Assembly: GCF_003555505.1 (NCBI RefSeq)
Contig: NZ_CP032152.1
Location: forward strand, 1,597,001 to 1,661,000
DNA from: Thermosynechococcus sichuanensis E542
Lineage (GTDB): Bacteria; Cyanobacteriota; Cyanobacteriia; Thermosynechococcales; Thermosynechococcaceae
Length of the DNA stretch: 64,000 nucleotides
Reading direction: 5' to 3'
Part shown: piece by piece, positions 31,564 to 48,456 of the stretch
Numbering within the stretch: the first letter of the stretch is position 1
Layout of the letters: every line of letters begins with the position of its first letter
Notes under the pieces: generated by a model
Told to the model about the DNA's origin: nothing
Databases searched by the model: none
Seen by the model: only the letters and a program-made list of their open reading frames with translations
Made by a program: the position numbers and the translations under genes

Positions 31564-31637
<74 letters not shown>

Positions 31638-33260: not shown

Positions 33261-35828
33261 GTGGACGATCGCTACGACCCCCAAGTGATTGAGGCCAAGT
33301 GGCAACGGGAATGGGCTGCACGCCAGATCGATCGCACCGCCACCGATCCGCAAAAGCCCAAGTTCTACGCCCTCTCGATGTTTCCCTACCCCTCTGGGAA
33401 TCTGCACATGGGGCATGTCCGCAACTATACGATTACCGATGTCATTGCCCGCTGTCGGCGGATGCAGGGCTATCGCGTTCTCCACCCGATGGGCTGGGAT
33501 GCCTTTGGCCTACCGGCGGAAAATGCCGCCATTGAACGGGGGATTCATCCTCGCGTCTGGACACAGCAAAACATTGCCCAAATGCGCCAAGAACTGCAAC
33601 GCCTTGGCCTTTCCTACGACTGGGAACGGGAAGTGACCACCTGTCACCCCGACTACTACCGCTGGACGCAATGGCTATTTTTGGAGTTTTTTGAGGCGGG
33701 CTTGGCCTACCAGAAGGAAGCGGCAGTCAACTGGGATCCGGTAGATCAGACGGTTCTGGCCAATGAGCAGGTGGATAGCGAAGGGCGATCGTGGCGATCG
33801 GGTGCCTTGGTGGAGCGGCGACTGCTCAAGCAATGGTTTCTGAAAATTACTGCCTACGCTGAGGAACTATTGAACGACTTGGAGCAACTGACGGGCTGGC
33901 CAGAGCGGGTGAAATTGATGCAGGCCAACTGGATCGGTCAGTCCACCGGTGCCTATCTGGAATTTCCCATTGTGGGCAGTGATGAAAAAATTGCTGTTTT
34001 TACCACCCGTCCCGATACCGTCTATGGGGTGACCTACGTGGTGCTAGCACCCGAACATCCTCTAACGCTGCAAGTGACCACCAGCCGCCGCCGCAAAACG
34101 GTTGAGGCCTTTATTGCCAGTGTGCAACAGGAAAGTGAACTGGAACGCACAGCCGGCGATCGCCCCAAGCGCGGTGTAGCTACCGGTGGCAAAGCCCTGA
34201 ACCCCTTTACTGGTGAAGAAATCCCCATCTGGATTGCCGATTATGTCCTCTACGAATACGGTACCGGTGCTGTGATGGGCGTACCTGCCCACGATGAGCG
34301 TGATTTTCAGTTTGCCAAAGCCCACAAGCTCCCCATTCGCCCAGTGATCATCCCCCCAGACGGCACAGCCAGTACCCGCCTTAAGGCTGCCTATACCGAG
34401 CCGGGAAGATTAATCAACAGTGGCCCATTTGATGGCATGGACTCCACCGCAGCTAAAGCAGCGATTACCGAGTACGCGGCCACCCAAGGCTGGGGACGGG
34501 AGCAAGTGCAATATCGGCTGCGGGATTGGCTCATTTCCCGCCAGCGCTACTGGGGTGTCCCCATTCCCATCATTCACTGTCCGCAGTGTGGAGCCGTGCC
34601 CGTGCCGCGCTCAGAATTGCCCGTGCTGCTCCCAGAGGAAGTGGAGTTTACGGGTCGTGGTCCTTCTCCCTTGGCGAAGCTTGAGGCGTGGCGCAATGTC
34701 CCGTGCCCGAAATGTGGCACCCCTGCCCAGCGGGAAACGGATACGATGGACACTTTTATTGACTCCTCTTGGTACTACTTCCGCTATGCTGATGCTCGCA
34801 ATAGTGAAGCCCCCTTTGACCCCGCAGCCATCAAGGACTGGTTACCGGTGGATCAGTACGTGGGGGGGATTGAGCATGCCATTCTTCACTTGCTCTACTC
34901 CCGCTTTTTTACTAAAGTCTTGCGCGATCGCGGGCTAGTGCATGTGAGTGAACCCTTTCAACGTCTCCTCACCCAGGGCATGGTGCAGGGACGCACCTAT
35001 AAAAACCCCCGCACCGGTAAGTATGTGATTCCTTCGCAAATTGCCGATCTCAGCCAACCCACCGACCCCGACACTGGCGAACCCCTAGAGGTCGTCTATG
35101 AAAAAATGTCCAAGTCCAAGTACAACGGCGTTGCCCCCGGCGATGTTATCCAACAGTACGGTGCCGACACAGCACGGATGTTTATCCTCTTCAAAGCGCC
35201 CCCCGAAAAAGACCTCGAATGGGACGATGCTGATGTTGAAGGCCAATTCCGCTTCCTCAACCGCGTTTGGCGCCTCGTGCAAACCTTCAAAGCCAACGGT
35301 GGTCAACTGGGTCAACCCCTGCCTACGACCCTGACAAAAGCGGAAAAAGACCTCCGCCGTGCTATCCACACTGCCATCAAAGAAATTAGCGACGATCTCG
35401 AAGGCGACTATCAACTCAACACCGCTGTCGCCGAACTCATGAAACTCAGTAATGCCCTTGGCAGCGCTGACTGCTACACTTCAGGCGTGTATAGCGAGGG
35501 CATCCAAACCCTACTCACCCTGCTCGCCCCCTTTGCCCCCCACATCAGCGAAGAACTCTGGCAACAACTGGGCGGCACTGACTCCATCCACCGCCAACCT
35601 TGGCCCAAAGCAGACCCCACTGCCCTCGTGGCCGATGAAATCACCCTTGTCATTCAGGTCATGGGCAAAACCCGTGGCGCAATTCAAGTGCCTGCTACGG
35701 CTAGCCAAGCCGAACTTGAGGCAGCCGCCAAACAGTCAGAGATTGGCCAGCGCTACCTAGCGGGTAAAACGATCAAAAAAGTGATTGTTGTTCCCGGCAA
35801 GTTAGTGAACTTTGTCTTAGCCCCCTAA
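33261..35828 (+). CDS. leuS: Leucine--tRNA ligase
   Basis: 855 residues, full length. The class I HIGH motif appears as [13 protein letters not shown], the KMSKS loop as [10 protein letters not shown], and the editing domain CP1 has [13 protein letters not shown] zinc-type Cys set is seen in [10 protein letters not shown] and [10 protein letters not shown]. The start is GTG 33261. The stop shares CTAA with the convergent Wzc-type gene. Confidence 0.96.
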
Positions 35829-38155
35829 ACACTCACTGGTTGCCGCAGTCCACCGGCAGGAATATCCGATTCTCGCTCCCGCTTTGCAGTGGTTTTGGGC
35901 GTAGGTGCCCCATTGACCACAATCCCCAGAAGCTTGTTGGGAAAATTGAGACTATAGTCCTTGCAGACATTCGTGAAGGCTTCCCGCTCCGTGTGGTTGA
36001 GCCGCAAGACCAAGAGAGCACCATCAACAACGGTTAGCAGGCGATTGGTCTCCGAATCAGTCAACTGCGGCGGCGTATCCAGAATCACCCAGTCAAAGGC
36101 TGCTTTCATCTCCTGTAGCAGTGCTACACCCACTTCCGAACTCAAGCGACCACTGCCTTGCCCTGCCGTCAATACCCACAAACGCTCCGAATGCTGCTGT
36201 AGGAGTCCTTGCCAGTAGGGAGGCGGCGTTGACCCTGCCAGTAGTTCTCCCACCCCCGATGTATTGGCAATTCCCAAGGCAGTATGCAGTCCCGGTTCCC
36301 GCAGATTGGCATCGACTAGAAGCACCCGCTGTCCCAGCGAAGCTGCTGCTAGTGCCAAATAAAGGGCGATCGTGGTTCGTCCTGCCCCTGCTTCTGCCGA
36401 TGTAATCGCAATTATTCCCCGCTGGCGCTGCTGCTGTATCCGTCCCACCAAGAATAGAAAGCTCTCCTGAAAAGCTTGGGGGCTATTGGGCAAATGGTGC
36501 TGTAACCCCCACAGTGCTACAGGTTGTTCCAAACGATTAAACGAGAATTGATCCCACTCTGTCGTTAAAGGCACTTGACCGATCACAGGCGCCGGCATAC
36601 GCTTGAGCACCTGTTGCAGATCTTGAAACCGTGGATCCATCAGATCCAGCACAATAGCCAGCACTGCTCCCGAAAAGCCTCCCAACACCATCGCTAGGAT
36701 CAACGCCACGAGGAGCCGCATCGTCACCTCATACTGTTCTTCGTCATTGATGTCGGAGAGCAACTGCCATGCAAAGTCTTGCTGGGCAATTTGCAGTTGG
36801 AGTGATTGCCTAGTTTGTAACAGTAACTGCAAGGCCTGCTGCGCCGCTGCAATTCGCTGTTCAATTTTACGAAAACCCAGTGTTAAATTAATTGTGCGAT
36901 TAATTTGAGCCTCTACCTGCCGAATTTGTTCCTGTAAGCGAGTGTTGACCCGCTGTAAGGACTCATACTCAACTCCTGCGGTAATGTAATTCGTAATCAA
37001 ATCTGCTGATGTTGAGCTTTGATAGCCTATTAAATTCTCTGGGTTGTTGACGGCATTCCGTTGAGCAATGGTGCGTGCTTCAGATTGCAGTTGCTGCACT
37101 AGTTGCTGCCGCTCTGCCTCTACCTGTTGTACCATGGGTGAGTTGGCTGGAAATAAACTCATTTGCTCAGCTAGACGTTGCTCAACTTGGCGCAGTGCCC
37201 CTAGCTGGGAAGTATAACTAGGGGAAGTACTTAAATTGACAGCTACTAAGGCCTGTTGAGGTGTCATTCCTAATTCTTCCTCAAGAGCACGGAAACGCTG
37301 CTGAATGGCATCCATTTTAGATTCATTATCACTTTTAGCTTGTCGTAGCGCTGTCAATTGCGATCGCCATTCATCGGCATCTTTGGTAGGAGAAAACACT
37401 CGATTGGCTGCTCTAAAATCCCGTAAATCTTGCTCTAGTTCTTCGATTTGTCGAATAGTCTTACTGATTTCATTATTAACATAGCGTAAATTTTGCTGAA
37501 TTTGCCTATTTTTCTGCTGCTCATTAAAGTTAATAAGATAATCTGAGAGTAGATTAAGAAGAGAGCGAATTTTATCTTTATCCTTTGCTTGAAACTGAAT
37601 TTTAATGATTTTAGAATTAGAAGAACCTATTAACCTTCCTGCTCCAGGACTTTCGGCAGTAATCGATAAACTTTTAATAAAACTCTTGTAAGGATAGTTT
37701 TCACGATTCAACTCATCTGGGTATTCAGCTAGAAACTTTTCATAAATCGGTCGCAACACTAAGTCACTATTGAGAATTTGCACAAGGGTTTGGCTATCGC
37801 CACTCGTTTGACCTGAGAGCAGGGGTAAGCTTTGAATCCCTTGTAAGGTATCAGAGATTGCTTGCAGTTGTGCTCCAGAGCGCGCCCCTGGCTGTCGAAT
37901 GGCCTCAACTTGCATCAGAATTGAATACCGGTATGCGCGGAAGCCCAAGAAGTAGCCAACAAGAACAAGGCCTGCCACACATCCTGCAGTGAGTACCCCT
38001 ACTTTCCAGCGACGCTTAATACCACCTAAAAGCTGGCGCAGGTCAATCTCATCTTCATCTGACTCCTGAACAGCGGGGGCAGGTTCATAGACACCATTCT
38101 GGAGCCGACCATTTTGGTAGGCAGGGTTTGTCGGGAGTGTGGATTCCTCAATCAC
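35825..38155 (-). CDS. Wzc-type polysaccharide co-polymerase with P-loop domain (Walker A Lys replaced)
   Basis: 776 residues. An N-terminal membrane segment (about 52-72), a long periplasmic coiled-coil Wzz/GNVR domain and a second membrane segment (about 485-508) are followed by a cytoplasmic BY-kinase-like domain. It controls chain length and export of capsular or exopolysaccharide. The P loop reads [10 protein letters not shown]: the essential lysine is Arg593 (CGA, 36377-36379). Walker A' ([11 protein letters not shown]) and Walker B (WVILDTPP) are present. No tyrosine cluster is at the C-terminus. The start is GTG with GAGGA upstream. It is divergent from the sugar-transferase gene, 122 nt apart. 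The middle of the gene is AT-richer than its ends. Confidence 0.88.
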
Positions 38156-38277
38156 GTGGATTTGTCCTCTGATCTAAAGAACAGCGAGTAAGTGCGACTG
38201 TAGCATCGGTGTTGACTTGATTTTAGACGACGCATTGCTATACTGGCTACCAAGCTAACTCATGGCCTTGATCATAG

Positions 38278-39669
38278 ATGAATCACCTTGGAACGAACGC
38301 TTCCCTAATTACTCGTATTACAGATGGGCTGGCGATCGCTGGGCTAGCAGTCGTTGACTTATGGTTTCTTGAGCGAGGCACGCTGGCTCCCCCCTCCTTC
38401 AGCGTTGTACTACTCAGCATTATGCTGTTTTGGGTCTTTACCGAACTCTGGGGGGGCTATCAGGACTTGCGGATTCGTCCTTTCTGGGTGGAGGTGCGAC
38501 GGATCAGTGCAGCATGGCTCTCTACAGGGCTGACTTTACTTGTTTTGGGTTGGATTTTCAAGCTCACTGCTGCTTATTCACGGCAAGGGATGGCACTCTG
38601 GTTTTTGCTCACACTTTTCCTACTCCTAGTTGGGCGATATAGTATCCGCCAAATTCTCAAAGCACTTCGTCGCAAGGGGAAAAACCGTCGCCGTGCTGTG
38701 ATTATTGGTGCAGGTCAGCTAGGACAACGTTGGTTGAGAACACTGCACCGCCATTCCCATCTGGGTATTGATGTTCTGGCTTTTTTTGATGACGCTCCAG
38801 AGTTATGCAATACCTTGATAGAGGGCATTCCTGTCCAAGGCAGTACGGAAGCCGCAGCCCAATTTGTTGCGGAAAAGAAAGTTGACTTGGTTTATCTAGC
38901 ATTGCCCTTAAGAGCAGAAGAGCGGCTACGGCAAATCATGCAGCAGTTTCATGACTCAACCGCAACAGTGTACTTACTCCCCAATATTTTTGTCTTCGAG
39001 CTGCTAAATCTGCGCCTTTTTCAAGTGGATGGCGTTCCTCTCATTGCCCTATCAGAATCACCCCTGACGACTTACAATGCATTGATGAAACGGCTAGAAG
39101 ATTTAATTTTAGGAACGATAGCTTTACTAATTTTTTCTCCTGTAATGCTTCTTATAGCTGTTTTAGTTAAACTCGAGTCACAGGGTTCCGTATTCTTTAT
39201 TCAAGATCGTTATGGCTTAAATGGCGAGAAAATAAGAGTATGGAAGTTTCGCACCATGAGAATTTGTGACAAAGGAGACCCACGCAACCCTGTGCAACAA
39301 TCTGATCAACGAGTAACCAGAATAGGTAGAATTTTACGCAAAACCTCATTAGATGAGCTACCACAACTTTTTAATGTAATTAAAGGCGAAATGAGCCTAG
39401 TTGGTCCAAGACCTCATGCTGTAACATTTGATCAATACTATCGAGACTATCTACGGGAAAAATGTTACATATGGCGCTACCAAGTTAAGCCAGGTATTAC
39501 AGGTTGGGCACAGGTTAATGGCTGGAGGGGAGATCGAGGTAGCCTTGAAGAAATAGAAAAGCGCCTTGAATGCGATTTATTTTATATTAGAAACTGGTCT
39601 TTATCTCTTGATTTCTACATTTTGTGGCTCACCATTTGGCGAGGATTTACTCATAAAAATGCTTATTAG
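38278..39669 (+). CDS. Undecaprenyl-phosphate sugar phosphotransferase (initiating enzyme)
   Basis: 463 residues. Membrane segments at the N-terminus (about 10-105), a CoA-binding-like domain ([15 protein letters not shown]), a fifth hydrophobic segment (about 280-300) and the catalytic bacterial sugar-transferase domain with [20 protein letters not shown] and [11 protein letters not shown]. It transfers the first hexose-1-phosphate to undecaprenyl phosphate (WbaP/WcaJ/CpsE family), so it starts the repeat unit built by the following glycosyltransferases. Base composition shifts from native to AT-rich near 39.1 kb, that is, at the start of the catalytic domain. Confidence 0.9.
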
Positions 39670-39693
39670 AACTGTAGCCTAGGAAAGCCGAAT

Positions 39694-41313
39694 ATGATTA
39701 AAGTCAGTAGTATTTCAATTCAAAACTATCGGTGTATTGATCAAGCTGTCAAGATTAATATCGAGCCTTTAGCAGTGTTGGTCGGCAAGAATGATACGGG
39801 AAAATCAACGATTCTACGAGCACTAGAAAGCTTTTTTAATCCAAAACAATTTGACTGGGATGACCAGCATACTCAAGGTGAGCCAACAGAAATCAGTGTA
39901 ACTTGCGAACTAACTACTTCACATCAATTTGGTGAGAGGCTAAGAAAGATAAATTTACTCAGCCAAGAAAATACTTTCAGAATGCGTCGTGTATGGGAAC
40001 AACGAGGGCGTGGATGCCGAACATCACTATGGAATTTCTGTAGTAGTGAATGGATCGATGTTCCTAGTTCTGGAAATTCAGCAATTCGTGAGATTGCCCA
40101 TGAACTCGTAGAAGTTTTACCTAGTTATCAGTATTTCCATGCTCGTGGCACCCTTCAAGAAGCAGAAAGTGCTATTCAGCAATATCTACGAAGAATCATC
40201 CAGAAAGAATGTGAAACGAATCCGGCTGTTCTCGAACTACAAAAGAAACTAGAGACAGTGATTGAAAAGGAGCTAGAATCAATTACTGAAAAAATTAGAG
40301 CAGCAACATCTAGCCCAGAAACACTAAATGCCAAACGAGATTTTAATTGGTCAAAAGTGCTTGATATTAAGTTTACGATAGGAGAGAAAGACTTAGCTAT
40401 CAATAGTCGTGGTGATGGGTTTCAGCGCATTACCATGCTATCCTACTTTGAGTACTTAGCTGAGAGAAGTATATCCAGCAGTAATACACAAAAGCAGGAA
40501 ATTATTTTCGCAATTGAAGAGCCTGAAACCTATTTACACCCTTCGGCCCAAGAAACCTTATTTTCTCGTCTAGTCGAACTTACGCATTTGGGCTATCAAG
40601 TTCTCATAACTTCCCATTCACCGATTATCGTTGCCCAAGTACCACTGTCCTCTTTAATTCATGTGCAACGTCAAAATAACCTTGTTCATTATCAAACAGA
40701 AAATCTTGCTTTAGAGTTAATTATCCGTGATCTAGGTATTGCACCAGATAGTCAGCTAACTAGTTTGTTAATACAACACAAAGGATTTATTTTAGTAGAA
40801 GGCAAGGATGATGTCATTGCTTTGAGCCATGCGAGTCAAGTCTATAAAAAAGCAGGAGAAATTGAAAAAACGTTTGAAGAAATGGGTGTTATTATTTTAC
40901 CTGTTGGTGGTTGTGGAAATATTAAACATTGGCTGAACCTGCAAATCATTCATCGGCTTAATAAACCATTCATTGTATTCTTTGACTCCGATAGAGAATC
41001 AAGAGACAGTCTATCACCACGGCAGAAAGAACTAGAGAGACTTGATCATCTTGACCCTTCCGTTATTTTTGTTACCCGAAAGAGGGCAATAGAAAACTAT
41101 ATTCTTGATTCTGTAGTTAATCGCCTGAATCCATCACTCAATTTGAATTATACAGATTTCGATAATGTAAAAAAATTACCGAAAGCAGGTAACTTGATCG
41201 AAAAATACTTTGAGCGACTGACGTTTACTGATCTAAAAGCTGCATTTGTAACCAATAATGAAGAAGATGAGTTTTTAGAGTTGTATAGAAAAATCTCTAG
41301 TATGATCGCTTGA
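39694..41313 (+). CDS. AAA ATPase-TOPRIM protein (OLD or fused PARIS-like), probable defence nuclease
   Basis: 539 residues. N-terminal ABC/AAA-type ATPase: Walker A GKNDTGKS (31-38) and Walker B with AIEEPETYLHP (about 273-283), followed by LITSHSP. The C-terminal TOPRIM part has Glu369 in LVEGKDD, Asp431/Asp433 in FFDSD, and an IENYI motif near 466-470. This is the architecture of OLD nucleases; the IENYI block also recalls DUF4435 in PARIS AriB, so a fused AriA-AriB is an alternative. No UvrD-like helicase is adjacent, which argues against a Gabija/class 2 OLD pair. AT-rich and inside a glycan cluster; its 3' end overlaps a glycosyltransferase by 17 nt. Confidence 0.85.
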   Translation: MIKVSSISIQNYRCIDQAVKINIEPLAVLVGKNDTGKSTILRALESFFNPKQFDWDDQHTQGEPTEISVTCELTTSHQFGERLRKINLLSQENTFRMRRVWEQRGRGCRTSLWNFCSSEWIDVPSSGNSAIREIAHELVEVLPSYQYFHARGTLQEAESAIQQYLRRIIQKECETNPAVLELQKKLETVIEKELESITEKIRAATSSPETLNAKRDFNWSKVLDIKFTIGEKDLAINSRGDGFQRITMLSYFEYLAERSISSSNTQKQEIIFAIEEPETYLHPSAQETLFSRLVELTHLGYQVLITSHSPIIVAQVPLSSLIHVQRQNNLVHYQTENLALELIIRDLGIAPDSQLTSLLIQHKGFILVEGKDDVIALSHASQVYKKAGEIEKTFEEMGVIILPVGGCGNIKHWLNLQIIHRLNKPFIVFFDSDRESRDSLSPRQKELERLDHLDPSVIFVTRKRAIENYILDSVVNRLNPSLNLNYTDFDNVKKLPKAGNLIEKYFERLTFTDLKAAFVTNNEEDEFLELYRKISSMIA

Positions 41314-42415
41314 ATTTTTCCCACTCTCGATCAACTAAAGCAGAAAATTGATTTCTAAAGCGTTCAGCAGAAAATTTCTCGGCTTGTTGACGAATTAAAT
41401 AAGGATCAAACCGATTACATTCAAAATACTCAACAGCATCTATAATAGTTTTTGGATTTTGATAGTCAAAAAATACACCTGTTTGATCTGCAACTACTGA
41501 CTCAGTAACACCACCTCGACCATAAGCAATCACTGGTGTACCACAGGACATTGCTTCAACAGGCAAAATTCCAAAATCTTCTTCTGCAGCAAAGATAAAA
41601 GCACGAGCATTTTCAAGATAAGATTTAAGTACTTCAAATGGTTGATAGCCTAGAATTCGGATATTTTTAGCATTACGCGCCTTTTGCTTAATTTTAGACA
41701 TTTCAGAACCGTCACCAATTACAACTAGTTGACGATTTGGCATTTGGCAAAAAGCTTCAACAATTAGATCGATACGTTTATAGGGAACCATGCGACTAGC
41801 AGTTAAATAAAAGTCTTGCTTAACAGTCTGAAGGTTAAATTTCTGAACGTCAACTGGTGGATAAATCACATGAGAATCACGACGATAAACTTTCTGGATA
41901 CGTCGAGCAATATATTTAGAGTTTGCAACAAGAACATCTGGCCTTTGTCCAGCCACTTGATCCCATATACGAAGATAATGAAAAATGAGTCGTGCTATTA
42001 CTCCCTTAACTCCTTTATCAAGATTGGCCTCTTTAAGATACTGTGCTTGTAGGTCCCAAGCGTACCGTGGTGGAGAATGAATGTAAGAAATATGGAGTGT
42101 GTCAGGTCCTGTAATTACACCCTTACTGACTAGATGAGAATCACTAATAACTAAATTATAGTTGCGCAGATCAAAAGTTTCAATAGCGTAAGGCATAAAA
42201 ACAAGTAATTTTTGATAGAAATTCTTAACATTTGGAAATTTTTGTAAAAAAGAAGTAGTTAATTTGTGCGAACTAATAATCGATTGAGATTTAGTAGAAA
42301 GATACTCAATTAACGAAAAAACATCAGCTTCTGGAAACAAATTACTAATCTCGCCAAAAACATTTTCAGCACCAGCTAGTACTACAAACCATTCGTGAAT
42401 TAATGCTATTTTCAT
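41297..42415 (-). CDS. Family 4 glycosyltransferase
   Basis: 372 residues. GT-B fold enzyme of the WbaZ/mannosyltransferase type; the N-terminal IHEWFVVLAGAENVF and C-terminal donor-site pattern LPVEAMSCGTPVIAYGRGG are visible, with the EX7E-type acidic residues. It is cytoplasmic and should add a sugar to the lipid-linked repeat unit. AT-rich codon use contrasts with the native genes. It is the last gene of a leftward run from 46661 to 41297. Confidence 0.88.
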   Translation of the reverse strand: MKIALIHEWFVVLAGAENVFGEISNLFPEADVFSLIEYLSTKSQSIISSHKLTTSFLQKFPNVKNFYQKLLVFMPYAIETFDLRNYNLVISDSHLVSKGVITGPDTLHISYIHSPPRYAWDLQAQYLKEANLDKGVKGVIARLIFHYLRIWDQVAGQRPDVLVANSKYIARRIQKVYRRDSHVIYPPVDVQKFNLQTVKQDFYLTASRMVPYKRIDLIVEAFCQMPNRQLVVIGDGSEMSKIKQKARNAKNIRILGYQPFEVLKSYLENARAFIFAAEEDFGILPVEAMSCGTPVIAYGRGGVTESVVADQTGVFFDYQNPKTIIDAVEYFECNRFDPYLIRQQAEKFSAERFRNQFSALVDREWEKFKRSY

Positions 42416-42442
42416 ATGTCGTTATTAAATCTTATTATATTC

Positions 42443-43456
42443 CTAAATTGTGATTGAGTCAATAACATCTACTATTTTTTTTACAGTTATATCCCAAGAA
42501 AATTTTCTGGACTGTTTCAACCCCTTATCAATCATTTGGCAACGCAAACTTTGATCTTCAACTATTCTATTCATTGCTGAAATAATTTCATCTAAGCTGT
42601 GTGGATCAACTAAAAGAGCAGCATCACCTGCAATTTCTGGCAGGGAGGTAATGTTGGAAGTAATTACAGGTGTCCCACAAGCCATAGCCTCTACTACAGG
42701 TAGGCCAAAACCTTCGTAAAAGGATGGAAACAAAAGTGCAACTGCTCCTCGATACATTGATGCAAGTTCCTGATCACTAATACCATGAATAAAATTTACA
42801 TCATCACCTAGGTTATTTATATTAATATACTTTTTCAGTTCAGGAGTTAGGTACGCAACGCAGACCAAAGAGAAGTGATATTTCGATCTAAACTGCTTGA
42901 ATGCTTTTAATACACCAATTATATTTTTGTGTGGTTTTGAATTGCCAACATAAAGAAAATAAGGTTTTTTGTAGATTAATTTTGAAGCTTTTTCATTAAA
43001 GCAAGTACTAATACCATTACCAATCACTGTGATCTTGTTTGAATCTACAGTAAAGTATTCTATAATTTCACGTCTAGAAAATTCTGAAACAGTAAATATA
43101 TGGAGGGCATTTTTAATGCCTAGTCTAACTACCGTATTGTAGTAAAGAAATTTACTCAAATTCTTGCTACGAGGATACTTTACATGAATAAGATCATGAA
43201 TAGTAAAAGCAAAAGAAATTTTTGAGAAAATAGGAGGTGTGAAACTTGGGGAAAAAAACAAATGGTTACTATAAATACTCGAAGTATATAGAAAATCTTT
43301 ATTAAGAATTATGTTTCCTAAGATAGATACAGGACTATAATGAGAAGTATAATCATTAACCTTATAGTAATTTGATAGCCTATTTCTAATTTCTGCACTA
43401 AATCTTCCAATTCCATGACTACCTGTCCACCTAGAGTCATAAATAACGGTTAACAT
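42443..43456 (-). CDS. Family 4 glycosyltransferase
   Basis: 337 residues. GT-B enzyme. The acceptor domain contains FTIHDLIHVKYP, and the donor domain FEGFGLPVVEAMACGTPVI and SLPEIAGDAALLVDP, resembling mannosyl- or rhamnosyl-transferases. The start overlaps the end of the polymerase gene by 7 nt, so the two are translationally coupled. Sugar specificity cannot be read from sequence. Confidence 0.88.
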   Translation of the reverse strand: MLTVIYDSRWTGSHGIGRFSAEIRNRLSNYYKVNDYTSHYSPVSILGNIILNKDFLYTSSIYSNHLFFSPSFTPPIFSKISFAFTIHDLIHVKYPRSKNLSKFLYYNTVVRLGIKNALHIFTVSEFSRREIIEYFTVDSNKITVIGNGISTCFNEKASKLIYKKPYFLYVGNSKPHKNIIGVLKAFKQFRSKYHFSLVCVAYLTPELKKYININNLGDDVNFIHGISDQELASMYRGAVALLFPSFYEGFGLPVVEAMACGTPVITSNITSLPEIAGDAALLVDPHSLDEIISAMNRIVEDQSLRCQMIDKGLKQSRKFSWDITVKKIVDVIDSITI

Positions 43457-44721
43457 AACCCCTCTCTCTTCCTATCTAAAAGCACGAGACCAAAAACAAG
43501 TGCTAATACAGGTTCTTCCAAAATATTAACAATGTTACCATATATAAGAATGAATAATATAATACAAAATTTGAATTTATTTATTTTACTATACAACATC
43601 GATTTCGATGTTTTTATTAGTATCAATATTACCGATAGAAGGCTCAGAATAGCAATAGGTAATCCGAATAGAACACATAGGTAAACAAACAAGTTATCAG
43701 CAGGCAAATACCGCGAACTTTCAAAATACTGCTGAGGAGCACCTATACCGCCAATACCACGGCCAAATAACCAATAAAAAAGGTTGTTCAGTAAGTCAAA
43801 TGATGCTGGCCAAACTGATATCAAACGATCTTCAAAGCTTGCTAATAGTATGAGAGATAAATCATTAGTATAATCAATTGAATAGTGAGTATAGAGTGTT
43901 GAAATAGGGAGAATAACCATAGTCAAAGATAAAATAATCGCAATTATTGTCCAAGATAAACAAAAAAACCTTTTCTCTTTCACTGGAATGAGTGTAATAA
44001 AAAATAAGGTGAGAACTATCCAAGAAAATATGCATCCTTTTGAATTCGTTAAGTAAATCGCAAATCCTGATAATAACCAAACGAAAACTTTTAAAGATTT
44101 AAATTCAGTAAAAATAGTCGAATAAATTGCTAGAACTAGAGTTTGTGAAGCTGCATTAAATGAAGCTCTTGAAAATCCTGCATACCGTTCTACTCCAAAT
44201 GCCGTCCATTGCCTTGACACTTCAATTACTTGGCCACCTATCTCAATAGTCAAACCACTCCACGGAAAGGTTAAAAGCACATTTAAGAGAACGCCAAGAC
44301 TCGCAGAAAAAAATAGAAATATAAGGATTGTTTTTTGCTGTCTCAAATCAATCAGCTTGGAAGACCATAGACCTACCAGAAAAGGTGCTAGTACCCAAAG
44401 ACCGAAGAGTGCCTGTACAAGGTTCTTTAAATTAATTATTCCCCAAATAGTATACAAAGCAAAAAAAATAGTTATTAGTAAAACTTTTTGGTTGACTTTT
44501 GGTTTTATTAGAGGAATTATAAAAATAAGTAAGAAAAAGCTTAGCCTAGGAAGATATATCAGTGGTTCTAAACGAATCAAGAGTAATAACCAGCGCAATA
44601 GACCTTGAAATACTTCAAATAATATGAATAACAAAACTGTAAGTAAAATAAAATTTCTGAAGCCAAAAAATTTGAGTTTTTTAGAATGTGCTTTTTCTTT
44701 TGGAAGATACAGGTTACTCAT
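43450..44721 (-). CDS. Wzy-type O-antigen/exopolysaccharide polymerase
   Basis: 423 residues with about eleven hydrophobic segments and a periplasmic loop including FGRGIGGIGAPQQYFESSRY, of the O-antigen polymerase/ligase superfamily. Wzy enzymes join flipped repeat units in the periplasm before Wzc-controlled chain extension. ATG 44721 (MSNLYLPKEK) is preferred to an upstream ATG at 44778, which would overlap the next gene by 65 nt. It overlaps that gene by 8 nt. Wzy sequences are very diverse, so the call rests on topology and neighbours. Confidence 0.8.
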   Translation of the reverse strand: MSNLYLPKEKAHSKKLKFFGFRNFILLTVLLFILFEVFQGLLRWLLLLIRLEPLIYLPRLSFFLLIFIIPLIKPKVNQKVLLITIFFALYTIWGIINLKNLVQALFGLWVLAPFLVGLWSSKLIDLRQQKTILIFLFFSASLGVLLNVLLTFPWSGLTIEIGGQVIEVSRQWTAFGVERYAGFSRASFNAASQTLVLAIYSTIFTEFKSLKVFVWLLSGFAIYLTNSKGCIFSWIVLTLFFITLIPVKEKRFFCLSWTIIAIILSLTMVILPISTLYTHYSIDYTNDLSLILLASFEDRLISVWPASFDLLNNLFYWLFGRGIGGIGAPQQYFESSRYLPADNLFVYLCVLFGLPIAILSLLSVILILIKTSKSMLYSKINKFKFCIILFILIYGNIVNILEEPVLALVFGLVLLDRKREGLC

Positions 44722-45928
44722 GATTTTGATGTAGAACTTGTCGGTAGAGTTCTTCGTATGCATTGACCCATGAATCAATATTCAAGAAGTAGGAGCTACT
44801 TTTTTTCGAATTCTTAGATAAAGAATATCTTAAATTTTGATCATAGTAAACGCGATGAATGCAGGATATTAATTCACTAACACTATCTGGATCAAAGAGT
44901 AATCCATTTTCTCCATCATTAATCATTTCTGGAATACCGCCTCGCTTAGACGCAATTACTGGTTTACCAAATGCAAAAGCTTCTGGAATAACCATTCCTT
45001 GCGATTCTTGGCAAATTGACGGCACAACTAAAATATTTATTTTGGGATAAAACTCTGATGGTTTGACTCTGCCCATAAAGACTATCCTAGGATCACAACT
45101 CGCCTTGGTTTTTAGATATTTTTCGTAATCTTCTTTGCCGTCTCCTGCTATCCATAACTGAGCACTAGGTAAGTTTGCTTGGAGATAGGCGTCTATCAAT
45201 CGCTCTATGCCTTTAGCTGGATCTAGACGGCCAATGTAACCTATTTTGAATATCCTATGCTGCTCTTCGCTATAGTCAGTTTTTGATTTAACCAACTGAG
45301 GATCTACAGAATTATATATAACTTTTTTTATTGGTACTTGACTAAAGTAACCCAGTTCTAGATGTCTGTGTAAAATATAGTTACTAACACCAACAACAGC
45401 GTCTACGTTTTGACTTAAGTACTTATGAGGAAACCTTAGTAGCTTACACTGATAGCATTGCAAGTTGCAGTTTTTGCCATCTATTGACATTGTAGCCCTT
45501 GGACAGCATGTATAGTGGTCGTGCAAAACTTGTAACATAGGAATATGAAGATTTTTCAGTGTTCTCCATACAGCTCCTGACCAACCCGGTAAGTTATGTA
45601 TTGAAGCAATATGAGGTTTCTCCATATGTACGACTTTATAAACATAATTCTGCATAAAAATGTTATAAACATCTAAGAGATGCCAAATAAACTTACCAGC
45701 TTTACTTATTTTTTGGTTTGTATAAGGCCAATATAGATTTCTAATATTTGCCAACCATACACTTGTTTCACCAACTTTAGTGCATTTTAGACCTTTGTGG
45801 TTGCTTGTAGCCAATAATATACATTTATGCCCTTTATTTTCTAAAGCTTTTATTTGATTCCAAAGAGACTGTTCAGCACCACCACCTTTATCGCTTTCAC
45901 TAAGTGAACTTATAAATAAGATAGTCAT
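44714..45928 (-). CDS. Family 4 glycosyltransferase
   Basis: 404 residues from ATG 45928 (MTILFISSLS), with ATGs at 45949 and 45961 as alternatives. GT-B enzyme with N-terminal SDKGGGAEQSLW and donor site IPEAFAFGKPVIASKRGGIP. A Cys cluster CNLQCYQCK lies in the acceptor half, similar to a group of GT4 enzymes with a CxxCxxC zinc-type motif. It is the second gene of the leftward run. The sugar transferred is unknown. Confidence 0.86.
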   Translation of the reverse strand: MTILFISSLSESDKGGGAEQSLWNQIKALENKGHKCILLATSNHKGLKCTKVGETSVWLANIRNLYWPYTNQKISKAGKFIWHLLDVYNIFMQNYVYKVVHMEKPHIASIHNLPGWSGAVWRTLKNLHIPMLQVLHDHYTCCPRATMSIDGKNCNLQCYQCKLLRFPHKYLSQNVDAVVGVSNYILHRHLELGYFSQVPIKKVIYNSVDPQLVKSKTDYSEEQHRIFKIGYIGRLDPAKGIERLIDAYLQANLPSAQLWIAGDGKEDYEKYLKTKASCDPRIVFMGRVKPSEFYPKINILVVPSICQESQGMVIPEAFAFGKPVIASKRGGIPEMINDGENGLLFDPDSVSELISCIHRVYYDQNLRYSLSKNSKKSSSYFLNIDSWVNAYEELYRQVLHQNHE

Positions 45929-45935
45929 TTTTCTA

Positions 45936-46661
45936 TTAATACTTTGCATAGGTTTTTGCAAGACGATAGTATAGTAACATTAGCTGTATTGTCTTAGGAT
46001 AGAATTTGCTTTGAACTAAAAAAAAATCAAATATTGACCAAGCAATATTTACGTTAGACAGACCACCTAGTGCATACTCTCCAGCAATAAAAGGAACAAC
46101 TTGTAAACTAGCCCTATTTCTAATGGCTTTTAGTATAAAGTCTGCATCAGCACAGATTGGATAATTAACATCATAAAGGCCATATTGTTCATGTAAATCT
46201 TTTTTGATCAATGTTCCTACTGCATGTGAAGTAACAAACGACCAAGCTCCATAAATCCATGACATGCCCTTTTTAGGTTTGATTGTTTTATTACCAACTT
46301 TTACATATGCAGACACTAAATCTGTCTCTTTCCTTGATAAAACCCGTTGGTAGTTTTCTATTGCGTCAGCATTAAGCCTATCGTCAGCACCTACAACCAA
46401 GTAGTAATCTGTTTTACAGCGCTTAATACCCTTATTTAGAGCATCGTAGATTCCACAATCCGTCTCACTAATGTAGTCTGTGATAACATCACGAGCATCT
46501 TCTATAATCTTCACTGTTCCGTCTTGAGAAGCACCATCAATAACAATCCATTCAAAGTCCTTATCTGTTTGTTGACGAATAGATTCGATTAGACTAGGTA
46601 AATGTTCAGCAGCATTATATGTTGCTGTGATGATTGAAATTGATGGCACTTTTCCAGTCAT
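45936..46661 (-). CDS. Family 2 glycosyltransferase
   Basis: 241 residues. GT-A fold: nucleotide-binding start ISIITATYNAAEHL, the motif WIVIDGASQDGTV and the metal-binding ADD of LVVGADDRL. It resembles small colanic acid-type GT2 enzymes (WcaA/WcaE). It is the first gene of the leftward run; its promoter should lie in 46662-46780. AT-rich like the rest of the run. Confidence 0.88.
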   Translation of the reverse strand: MTGKVPSISIITATYNAAEHLPSLIESIRQQTDKDFEWIVIDGASQDGTVKIIEDARDVITDYISETDCGIYDALNKGIKRCKTDYYLVVGADDRLNADAIENYQRVLSRKETDLVSAYVKVGNKTIKPKKGMSWIYGAWSFVTSHAVGTLIKKDLHEQYGLYDVNYPICADADFILKAIRNRASLQVVPFIAGEYALGGLSNVNIAWSIFDFFLVQSKFYPKTIQLMLLYYRLAKTYAKY

Positions 46662-46994
46662 CTTTGCACTTTCTGATACTCTATCCTAGGTAACCTAGTC
46701 TTAGGCAGTACAGCATGGAGTATATCGTAGCACCTCAATTTTATACAACCCTAAGACTTAACTCTCTTGTTCATGATCCTCCTGGTGGTGGCAAGACAAC
46801 GCTGGCTCCCTATGTCCACAAGTAACTTCGGGCGGTTGGCCATGCCGTTCAACTTCTAGATTGAGGAGAGTGCGGCTAAGGTGTTGCAAAAGCTGGCGGA
46901 GTTTGGTGTGATGTGCTCAGTCGTTGAGTCCTAGGGGGTCGATCGCCCCCCAAAAGCGTCTAGGATAGGGACTGTAACCGTTCGAGCAGCGAGT
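46662..46994. other. 333-nt gap at the right edge of the AT-rich island
   Basis: From left to right it contains the probable promoter of the leftward glycosyltransferase run (AT-rich, to about 46750), a decayed P-loop gene remnant (separate entry), a GGGGGTCGATCGCCCCC inverted repeat at about 46934-46950, and the short leader of the DUF2839 gene. Composition returns to native within this gap. Confidence 0.6.
46768..46934 (+). pseudogene. Decayed P-loop protein remnant
   Basis: Rightward reading gives VHDPPGGGKTTLAPYVHK, a stop at 46823-46825, then LRAVGHAVQLLD and another stop; a shift of one base continues as IEESAAKVLQKLAEFGVMCS to a stop near 46934. The GGGKTTLA P loop followed by a GHAVQLLD strand resembles nucleotide or sulfate kinases of the P-loop class. 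Two stops and a frameshift mark it as broken. The parent family is not identified. Confidence 0.45.
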
Positions 46995-47201
46995 ATGGGT
47001 GAGGCAAAACGGCGCAAAGAAACCCTCGGTGATGCCTACGGTCAAGAAAAGGGGAGTTGGCTCAAGAAGGAGCAACTGCTGCTGATTCAGAAGTGGGTGA
47101 CGCGGGGCACGTGGGTGGGCATTGGCCTACTGGTGCTCATTTGGCTCACGGTTCGCTTTATTGGCCCAAGTCTGGGATGGTGGCAATTGGCGGCAAATTA
47201 G
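46995..47201 (+). CDS. Small membrane protein, DUF2839 family
   Basis: 68 residues: a basic N-terminal tail (MGEAKRRKETLG) and one membrane segment (about 37-57, GTWVGIGLLVLIWLTVRFIG). This matches the small cyanobacterial DUF2839 family, whose function is unknown. The dacB start lies 8 nt after its stop, so the two are cotranscribed, perhaps with herA-like as well. Confidence 0.82.
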   Translation: MGEAKRRKETLGDAYGQEKGSWLKKEQLLLIQKWVTRGTWVGIGLLVLIWLTVRFIGPSLGWWQLAAN

Positions 47202-47208
47202 GGCGGAG

Positions 47209-48456
47209 ATGTTAGAGCTTTTGGCAACGCTGGTATGGTACTGGGGACAGCCGCGCATTGAGGAACTCCAGCTACTACTTTTTCCGCCGGAAGTGGCATT
47301 GCATCAGTATCGCGATCGCTACCTGCAAACGCTGGCTCAAGAAGGTTTCTCCCCTAGTCAACAGGGGATTTGGGTTCAAAGTACACAACAGCTCCTCGTG
47401 AATCACCAAGGCGATCGCCCCCTTTCTGCTGCCTCGGTCACTAAAATCGCCACGAGCCTCGCCGTTCTGGATCAATACCCCTTTGACTATCAGTTCCTGA
47501 CTCGCATCGGCACCACAGGCACGCTAGAAAATGGTGTCCTCAGGGGGGATTTGGTCTTGATTGGCGGCAATGATCCCCTCTTTGTCTGGGAGGAAGCGAT
47601 CGCCATCGGTAATGCCCTCAATCGCTTGGGGATTCGTCAAGTGGCAGGGAATTTAGTCATCGTCCCCCCTTTTATGATGAACTTTTACCGTGAGCCGCAA
47701 ACTGCCGCAGCGCTATTCAGACTGGCCTTGGATCAGCACCGTTGGACACCTGAAATTCAAGCGGCCTATGCCGAGCACCTGAAGGCACAACCGCGACCCC
47801 AAGTGAGTATCAGAGGTGAAACACGCCTCCAAAGCACAATCCCCAGCAATGTCACAATTCGCCTAGAGCATCGCTCACTCCCCTTGGGGGAAATTGTGCG
47901 GCAAATGAATATCTACAGCAACAATGAGATTGCGGAAACGCTAGCAGAAATGGCAGGGGGTGCTGCAACCGTGGCTCAAGTCGCCGCTCGTAAAGCCAAT
48001 GTGCCCCCCAGTGAGATTCAACTGGTTAACGGCTCCGGTCTGGGGGAGGAAAATCGAATTTCGCCGCGGGCGGCTTGTGGGATGCTCTTTGCGCTCCAAG
48101 AGATGCTTGCTCAGAAAAACCATAGCCTAGCAGATGTGCTCCCCATGGCCGGGCGCGATCGCGGTACGTTAGAGTATCGTCAACTGCCTGCGGCAACGCT
48201 CGTGAAAACAGGATCCCTTTGGAATGTGAGTGCGTTGGTTGGCGTCTTACCTACAGCGAAATACGGCACCGTCTGTTTTGCCCTCCTCAATGGCGGTGGC
48301 ACCCTAGAGGGCTTTCGGCGGGCACAGGATCGCTATGTGCAGCACCTCAGTCAAACGTTACAACCGACTCAAAGACCGGGGGCGGAATTCCGCAGCCAAG
48401 CTGCCCCTCCGCGCTTGGGGGATCCACAGCGCATTCAACTGGTGACGGCTCAATAA
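47209..48456 (+). CDS. dacB: D-alanyl-D-alanine carboxypeptidase / PBP4-type peptidase
   Basis: 415 residues from ATG 47209. S13-family motifs: SVTK with the nucleophile Ser (AASVTKIATSLAVLD), the YSNNEIAE second Ser/Asn site and the VKTGSL box. It trims or hydrolyses peptidoglycan cross-links in the periplasm. No clear N-terminal signal peptide is seen at ATG 47209; the first 30 residues are only mildly hydrophobic, so export may need a more upstream start (47122 overlaps DUF2839). HerA-like gene follows after 3 nt. Confidence 0.88.
   Translation: MLELLATLVWYWGQPRIEELQLLLFPPEVALHQYRDRYLQTLAQEGFSPSQQGIWVQSTQQLLVNHQGDRPLSAASVTKIATSLAVLDQYPFDYQFLTRIGTTGTLENGVLRGDLVLIGGNDPLFVWEEAIAIGNALNRLGIRQVAGNLVIVPPFMMNFYREPQTAAALFRLALDQHRWTPEIQAAYAEHLKAQPRPQVSIRGETRLQSTIPSNVTIRLEHRSLPLGEIVRQMNIYSNNEIAETLAEMAGGAATVAQVAARKANVPPSEIQLVNGSGLGEENRISPRAACGMLFALQEMLAQKNHSLADVLPMAGRDRGTLEYRQLPAATLVKTGSLWNVSALVGVLPTAKYGTVCFALLNGGGTLEGFRRAQDRYVQHLSQTLQPTQRPGAEFRSQAAPPRLGDPQRIQLVTAQ

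What the first reader, a model, noticed from the sequence alone, without database searches (positions are those of the whole stretch)
38278..39669. Sugar transferase is a compositional mosaic
The first 0.8 kb (membrane and CoA-binding-like domains) is native in composition and holds a HIP1 octamer at 38333; from about 39,100, where the catalytic domain begins, the sequence turns AT-rich and stays so for the whole island. This looks like recombination inside the gene that swapped the catalytic domain, and so the first sugar, together with the downstream genes.
Basis: seen in the sequence. Interest (0 to 1): 0.55.

Follow-up and report, generated by a model that had tools for sequence, protein, structure and literature searches.

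The report
Composition break inside polysaccharide-initiating sugar transferase
The gene that starts a surface-sugar polymer in a hot-spring cyanobacterium changes DNA composition where its catalytic part begins, probably an old recombination seam inside a strain-variable sugar-polymer island; the predicted first sugar is glucose on both sides, so this is an ordinary kind of event.

Summary
The compositional step is real. Third-position GC in the gene drops from 0.47 to 0.28 at codon 272 (window 39,094), next to the start of the catalytic Pfam domain (codon 271). None of 116 homologues has so large a 5'/3' difference, and no native gene tested has so strong a step. But the first 0.8 kb is not native: its codon usage sits at the 1% tail of native segments, and it is missing from all 10 congeneric genomes. 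The whole gene belongs to an 11-kb exopolysaccharide island between leuS and dacB. Six of 10 congeners have an empty site there; two keep only relics of the neighbouring wzc end. So the predicted pattern, 5' conserved and 3' variable, fails. Both halves separately score best as WcaJ-type glucose-1-phosphate transferase, so a swapped first sugar is not supported. Intragenic recombination at the domain boundary remains the likeliest cause of the step (about 50%). It is not proven: 3 of 30 other exopolysaccharide genes of the genus have an equal or stronger step, and N- and C-domain trees are unresolved with overlapping neighbours. Ordinary biology; low interest.

The parts
38278..39093 (+). 5' part of the sugar transferase gene (membrane bundle and PF13727 CoA_binding_3 domain), GC3 0.47, codon usage intermediate between native and AT-rich
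39094..39669 (+). 3' part (PF02397 Bac_transf catalytic domain, Asp-Glu at residues 359-360), GC3 0.28, codon usage like the AT-rich island genes
39046..39118 (.). approximate 95% support interval of the codon-usage break (best 39,094)
38332..38339 (+). HIP1 octamer GCGATCGC; the only other one in the island is at 37360 in wzc
35825..38155 (-). wzc-type chain-length/tyrosine autokinase gene; left end of the island; relics of its 3' end remain in G008 and G001
39694..41313 (+). OLD-family ATPase/TOPRIM nuclease gene, no strong relative in the other 387 genomes of the class searched
41297..42415 (-). GT4 glycosyltransferase; matches at E 1e-70 in 306 of 388 genomes of the class (own included) but in none of the 10 congeners
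42443..43456 (-). GT4 glycosyltransferase
43450..44778 (-). 442-aa membrane protein with about 9 hydrophobic segments, Wzy-polymerase-like by position only (no Pfam or NCBIfam hit)
44714..45961 (-). GT4 glycosyltransferase
45936..46661 (-). GT2 glycosyltransferase
33261..35828 (+). leuS (named from the translation), left conserved flank
47122..48456 (+). dacB-like gene (name recalled from the translation, not looked up), right conserved flank; shared sequence with the nine relatives in which it was aligned next to or near this edge starts at about 46,864-46,995

Best explanation
The gene encodes a large monotopic phosphoglycosyl transferase of the WcaJ type, which starts a Wzx/Wzy-type polymer by moving glucose-1-phosphate onto undecaprenyl phosphate (function inferred from family, not tested). 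It sits in an 11-kb exopolysaccharide island between leuS and dacB that is variably kept or lost in the genus. The wzc end is an old resident of the site. The step at codon 272 most likely marks an intragenic recombination seam: homologous exchange at the conserved start of the catalytic domain joined an older wzc plus 5'-transferase block to an AT-rich block carrying the catalytic domain and the downstream genes. Both donors were WcaJ-type, so the first sugar probably did not change. Shown: the step, the island, the relics, both halves WcaJ by profile. Inferred: that recombination made the step, in which lineage, and from which donor.
For: Break at codon 272 by GC3 and, independently of amino acids, by codon usage, coinciding with the PF02397 start at 271. 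Larger than in 116 of 116 homologues and 16 of 16 native genes of at least 350 codons. Codon usage of the 3' part is like that of the downstream island genes, while the 5' part has values like the start of wzc. wzc relics downstream of leuS in G008 and G001 show that end of the locus is old. A UDP-glucose dehydrogenase gene of the genus's other exopolysaccharide locus has an intragenic recombination point at codon 243 (max z 7.5, 0 of 5000 permutations), near its own GC3 steps at codons 247-256.
Against: No relative carries only one of the halves, so no seam is seen directly. N and C trees (57 of 117 rows given) place the protein without support and with overlapping nearest rows. N/C identity proportions are normal for the family. 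Three of 30 exopolysaccharide genes elsewhere in the genus have an equal or stronger GC3 step; two of those are wzc, whose step is shared among paralogues and so is not a fresh seam. In the UDP-glucose dehydrogenase control all three copies carry the step, so step and breakpoint are not strictly the same thing.
Confidence: 0.5

Rival explanations
1. The step is compositional heterogeneity of exopolysaccharide genes, not a recombination seam: such loci in this genus are AT-rich with uneven GC3 along genes, and the transferase was inherited or acquired in one piece.
For: 3 of 30 exopolysaccharide genes in four other loci have steps of LR at least 18.6 and 6 of 30 at least 14. The wzc trough is shared by paralogues. 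Other exopolysaccharide genes of the genus have GC3 0.22-0.50 against 0.53-0.62 in their flanks. Identity of the two halves to homologues is in the usual proportion.
Against: In the transferase family itself none of 116 homologues shows it; the step is sharp, coincides with the domain boundary, and the two sides match two different neighbourhoods in codon usage.
Confidence: 0.3
2. The whole island, seam included, arrived from another cyanobacterium as one piece, so the recombination happened in a donor and not at this site.
For: Six of 10 congeners have a near-empty leuS-dacB site. The 5' part is not native in codon usage. Neither 38156-39100 nor the rest of the gene has a DNA match in any congener.
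Against: wzc relics at this exact site in G008 and G001 show the wzc end predates their split; HIP1 octamers at 37360 and 38332 fit residence in a HIP1-rich genome.
Confidence: 0.17
3. One reading: a native, conserved 5' part with a catalytic domain of different sugar specificity swapped in.
For: The step itself and the HIP1 octamer.
Against: 5' part absent from 10 of 10 congeners, not native in codon usage, and both halves separately best match WcaJ: N 151.0 against 85.9 bits for WbaP, C 328.9 against 182.6.
Confidence: 0.03

Closest known systems
WcaJ-type undecaprenyl-phosphate glucose phosphotransferase (TIGR03023), a large monotopic phosphoglycosyl transferase
   Same: Scores 498.3 bits against a cut-off of 410.75 over residues 38-463; membrane bundle, PF13727 and PF02397 in the usual order
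   Different: Only a two-part DNA composition that 116 homologues do not show
Serotype-type replacement islands of capsule/exopolysaccharide loci
   Same: Conserved flanks, variable AT-rich glycosyltransferase centre, wzc and initiating transferase at one edge
   Different: Seam apparently inside the initiating transferase; comparison from general knowledge plus a search listing with abstracts only, no capsule paper was read
The described Thermosynechococcus exopolysaccharide cluster with asnB (PMC9403480, section 19 read)
   Same: Variable content, gene-tree conflict for which the authors consider recombination; the own-genome copy is in L143 with its own wzc, 52% identical
   Different: The island here is a second, separate cluster beside leuS; that section speaks of one cluster in most genomes and of asnB, which this island lacks

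Membership tests
WcaJ (TIGR03023) glucose-1-phosphate transferase | whole-protein score above the curated cut-off | tested here: met
   498.3 against 410.75 bits
WcaJ (TIGR03023) glucose-1-phosphate transferase | catalytic Bac_transf domain with Asp-Glu pair | tested here: met
   PF02397 E 4.4e-65; one DE, at 359-360; that this is the catalytic dyad is inferred from the phosphoglycosyl transferase literature (passage seen)
WcaJ (TIGR03023) glucose-1-phosphate transferase | transfers glucose-1-phosphate | not testable with these tools
   needs an enzyme assay
Recombinant (mosaic) gene | composition break beyond chance | tested here: met
Recombinant (mosaic) gene | halves have different nearest relatives | tested here: inconclusive
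   nearest rows overlap, no supported placement
Recombinant (mosaic) gene | 5' part conserved and 3' part variable among related strains | tested here: not met
   5' part absent in all 10 congeners
Exopolysaccharide genomic island | empty or different site in relatives | tested here: met
Exopolysaccharide genomic island | complete Wzx/Wzy set | tested here: not met
   no flippase family among the 8 proteins scanned, polymerase only by position

The most novel reading that the evidence does not exclude
In thermophilic cyanobacteria, exopolysaccharide type may be changed by exchange of a block whose edge lies exactly at the catalytic-domain start of the initiating transferase, so that the regulatory/membrane half stays with the resident export gene wzc while the catalytic half travels with its glycosyltransferases.
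Probability: 0.2. Interest if true: 0.45.

Novelty: new member of a known kind. Interest (0 to 1): 0.22.

Why it matters
If the seam is real it shows that surface-polymer loci in hot-spring cyanobacteria are remodelled by exchange inside the first enzyme of the pathway, keeping its regulatory half with the local wzc. As it stands it documents a variable exopolysaccharide island with old relics in relatives, and it warns that GC steps inside such genes are common (3 of 30) and are weak evidence for recombination on their own.

Tried and rejected
Tried without gain: a scan of viral contigs for relatives (none). A genome-contig scan gave only distant homologues, 27-48% identity in the best segment. 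The family of the best match, G110, was only 2 genomes with nothing closer. No repeats of note within either island edge (each edge was scanned alone, the two edges were not compared with each other). The only tRNA in 30-52 kb, tRNA-Met at 31564-31637, is not at an island end.

Considered and rejected: a family-intrinsic GC step (rejected by 116 homologues); an amino-acid composition effect (the codon-usage test conditions on amino acid); wzc as a second seam (its step is shared by paralogues); change of first sugar; HIP1 as a discriminator inside the gene: the 5' part has 1 in 816 bases and the AT-rich 3' part is too short for its zero to mean anything; only the zero over 39,094-46,869 is telling.

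Rows dropped: 12 of 129 reading frames fell outside 420-560 residues, and the window's own copy was not counted as a homologue, 57 of 117 rows were used; one search used 30 chosen genes of four loci (L139, L143, L145, L146), and the short ORFs there were left out; one search tested 9 of the 10 congeners (not G009).

Full report
WHAT IS THERE. The window lies at 1,597,001-1,661,000 of a 2,650,294-base single-contig genome. That length is exactly the one listed for Thermosynechococcus elongatus PKUAC-SCTE542 in Table 1 of PMC9403480 (passage seen); the lengths of G005 and G006 equal those of CL-1 and BP-1 there. The gene at 38278-39669 is an intact 463-codon frame with PF13727 at residues 57-235 and PF02397 at 271-456. 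It passes the curated cut-off of TIGR03023, WcaJ glucose phosphotransferase (498.3 against 410.75 bits).

THE STEP. Splitting the gene at its best point gives GC3 0.47 before and 0.28 after codon 272, window 39,094. Codon permutations reach this in 0 of 500 and 28 of 40,000. With codon usage conditioned on amino acid the break is again after codon 272, approximate 95% support 257-280, 0 of 300 permutations. The Pfam catalytic domain starts at residue 271. Among 116 homologues of 420-560 residues cut at the same boundary, the GC3 difference averages -0.008, sd 0.053, maximum 0.12; here it is +0.19. Among 16 native genes of at least 350 codons the strongest step statistic is 6.2, against 18.6 here.

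THE 5' PART IS NOT NATIVE. Its mean native-versus-island codon score is 0.093; native 100-codon segments average 0.395 (n = 104) and island segments -0.311 (n = 21). The segments wholly inside it lie at the 0.01 native quantile and above all island segments. The beginning of wzc, on the other side of the divergent intergenic region, has a similar intermediate value. The HIP1 octamer at 38332 fits residence in a HIP1-rich genome; the island has 2 in 11 kb, 0 of them in 39,094-46,869, against 1.5-1.9 per kb in the flanks.

RELATIVES. No congener has the gene: protein search gives, in 10 of 10, only a C-terminal match of 44-45% to another transferase (matches within residues 251-453), the N-terminal 270 residues find nothing at 1e-15 in the 10 congeners, and the DNA of 38156-39100 finds nothing in them at E 0.001. 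leuS and the gene at 47122 are next to each other in six congeners, with about 39-256 unaligned bases between the aligned flanks (G005, G006, G002, G004, G007, G009). In G001 there are about 1.36 kb between them, holding a broken AAA-ATPase gene; in G003 and G010 the two flanks are far apart. G008, the closest by leuS (97%), has contig ends at the site that match wzc at 36454-36595 (89%) and 36615-36724 (77%) and lack the rest. Directly after leuS, G008 and G001 both retain sequence matching the wzc 3' end (scores 66 and 39 against shuffle maxima of 15 and 12, 0 of 500 shuffles each); the other seven congeners tested show no clear relic (G009 was not tested; G007 was reached by 2 of 500 shuffles, G006 by 24, G005 by 27, the rest by more). 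So the wzc end of the locus predates those splits and the island was lost more than once, or replaced.

WAS THE CATALYTIC DOMAIN SWAPPED? In favour: the sharpness and position of the step, the two sides matching two different neighbourhoods in codon usage, and evidence that intragenic recombination happens in exopolysaccharide genes of this genus: the UDP-glucose dehydrogenase genes of L143, L145 and L146 (function named by me from the translations) show a recombination point at codon 243, z 7.5, 0 of 5000 permutations, 205 informative sites. Against or neutral: N- and C-half trees of 57 of 117 rows leave the protein unplaced, with G110 and G011 among the nearest rows of both halves; N identity at given C identity is at or slightly above the family norm; and 3 of 30 exopolysaccharide genes in four other loci of the genus have an equal or stronger GC3 step (29.1, 24.8, 20.3). 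Two of these are wzc, whose AT trough is shared by paralogues. I therefore put recombination at this point at about one half.

WAS THE FIRST SUGAR CHANGED? Scanned separately, the N half scores TIGR03023 151.0 bits against 85.9 for WbaP (TIGR03022), and the C half 328.9 against 182.6; a homologue from G110 behaves alike. Both halves belong to the same functional class, so there is no sign of a change from or to galactose. In WbaP the N-terminal domain is reported to sense nucleotides and the surroundings of the catalytic dyad are thought to set specificity (PMC10942596, passages seen); that makes a domain exchange mechanically plausible but is not evidence for it here.

THE ISLAND. 35825 to about 46,870 holds wzc, the transferase, an OLD-family nuclease (PADLOC Old, E 3.6e-46; no relative at 1e-60 in the other 387 genomes searched), three GT4 and one GT2 glycosyltransferases and a 442-residue membrane protein without family hit. 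The GT4 at 41297-42415 has matches at 1e-70 in 306 of 388 genomes of the class, own included (listed relatives up to 58% identical), but in none of the 10 congeners, so the AT-rich block has a cyanobacterial flavour. AT-richness is normal for exopolysaccharide genes of this genus (GC3 0.22-0.50 in L139, L143, L145 and L146) and is not by itself a sign of recent import.

LITERATURE. Section 19 of PMC9403480 (read) describes one asnB-bearing exopolysaccharide cluster in most Thermosynechococcus genomes and considers recombination in it; the cluster here is a second one. Searches for recombination in capsule initiating transferases listed no paper that I could tell from title and start of abstract to report a seam at the catalytic-domain boundary; these papers were not read except for passages of PMC10942596 and PMC12802240. 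Passages of PMC3025956 on HIP1 scarcity and codon usage as signs of transfer were seen, and of PMC8209445.

VERDICT. A real intragenic composition step in a WcaJ-type gene within a variable exopolysaccharide island. The reading of a native 5' part with a swapped sugar specificity is not supported; a recombination seam between two WcaJ-type genes is likely but unproven.

Noticed in passing
L143:7554-8840, L145:10767-12080, L146:5110-6426: UDP-glucose dehydrogenase genes (named by me) of the genus's other exopolysaccharide locus are recombinant at codon 243: the L145 copy resembles L146 before and L143 after.
   Followed up: yes
window 39694-41313: OLD-family ATPase/TOPRIM nuclease, a probable defence gene, sits inside the exopolysaccharide island right after the transferase; no strong relative in the other 387 genomes of the class searched.
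   Followed up: partly
L132:3985-5200 (G001): The same leuS-dacB site in G001 holds a different, broken AAA-ATPase gene, so the site may be an insertion hotspot for defence-like genes.
   Followed up: partly
window 46770-46930: Remnant of a P-loop ATPase gene (HDPPGGGKTTLAPYVHK, then stops) at the right island edge, running into the conserved flank.
   Followed up: no
L139:4530-19763 (G010): In G010 an exopolysaccharide cluster with a wzc 53% identical lies beside leuS, whereas in the window's genome the wzc/epimerase/dehydrogenase-type cluster lies beside a leuA-like gene (L143; names from the translations); the locus seems to have moved.
   Followed up: no
L139:18564-19763: A glycosyltransferase gene with the strongest intragenic GC3 step seen (LR 29.1, 0.30 to 0.57 at codon 237 of 399).
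   Followed up: no
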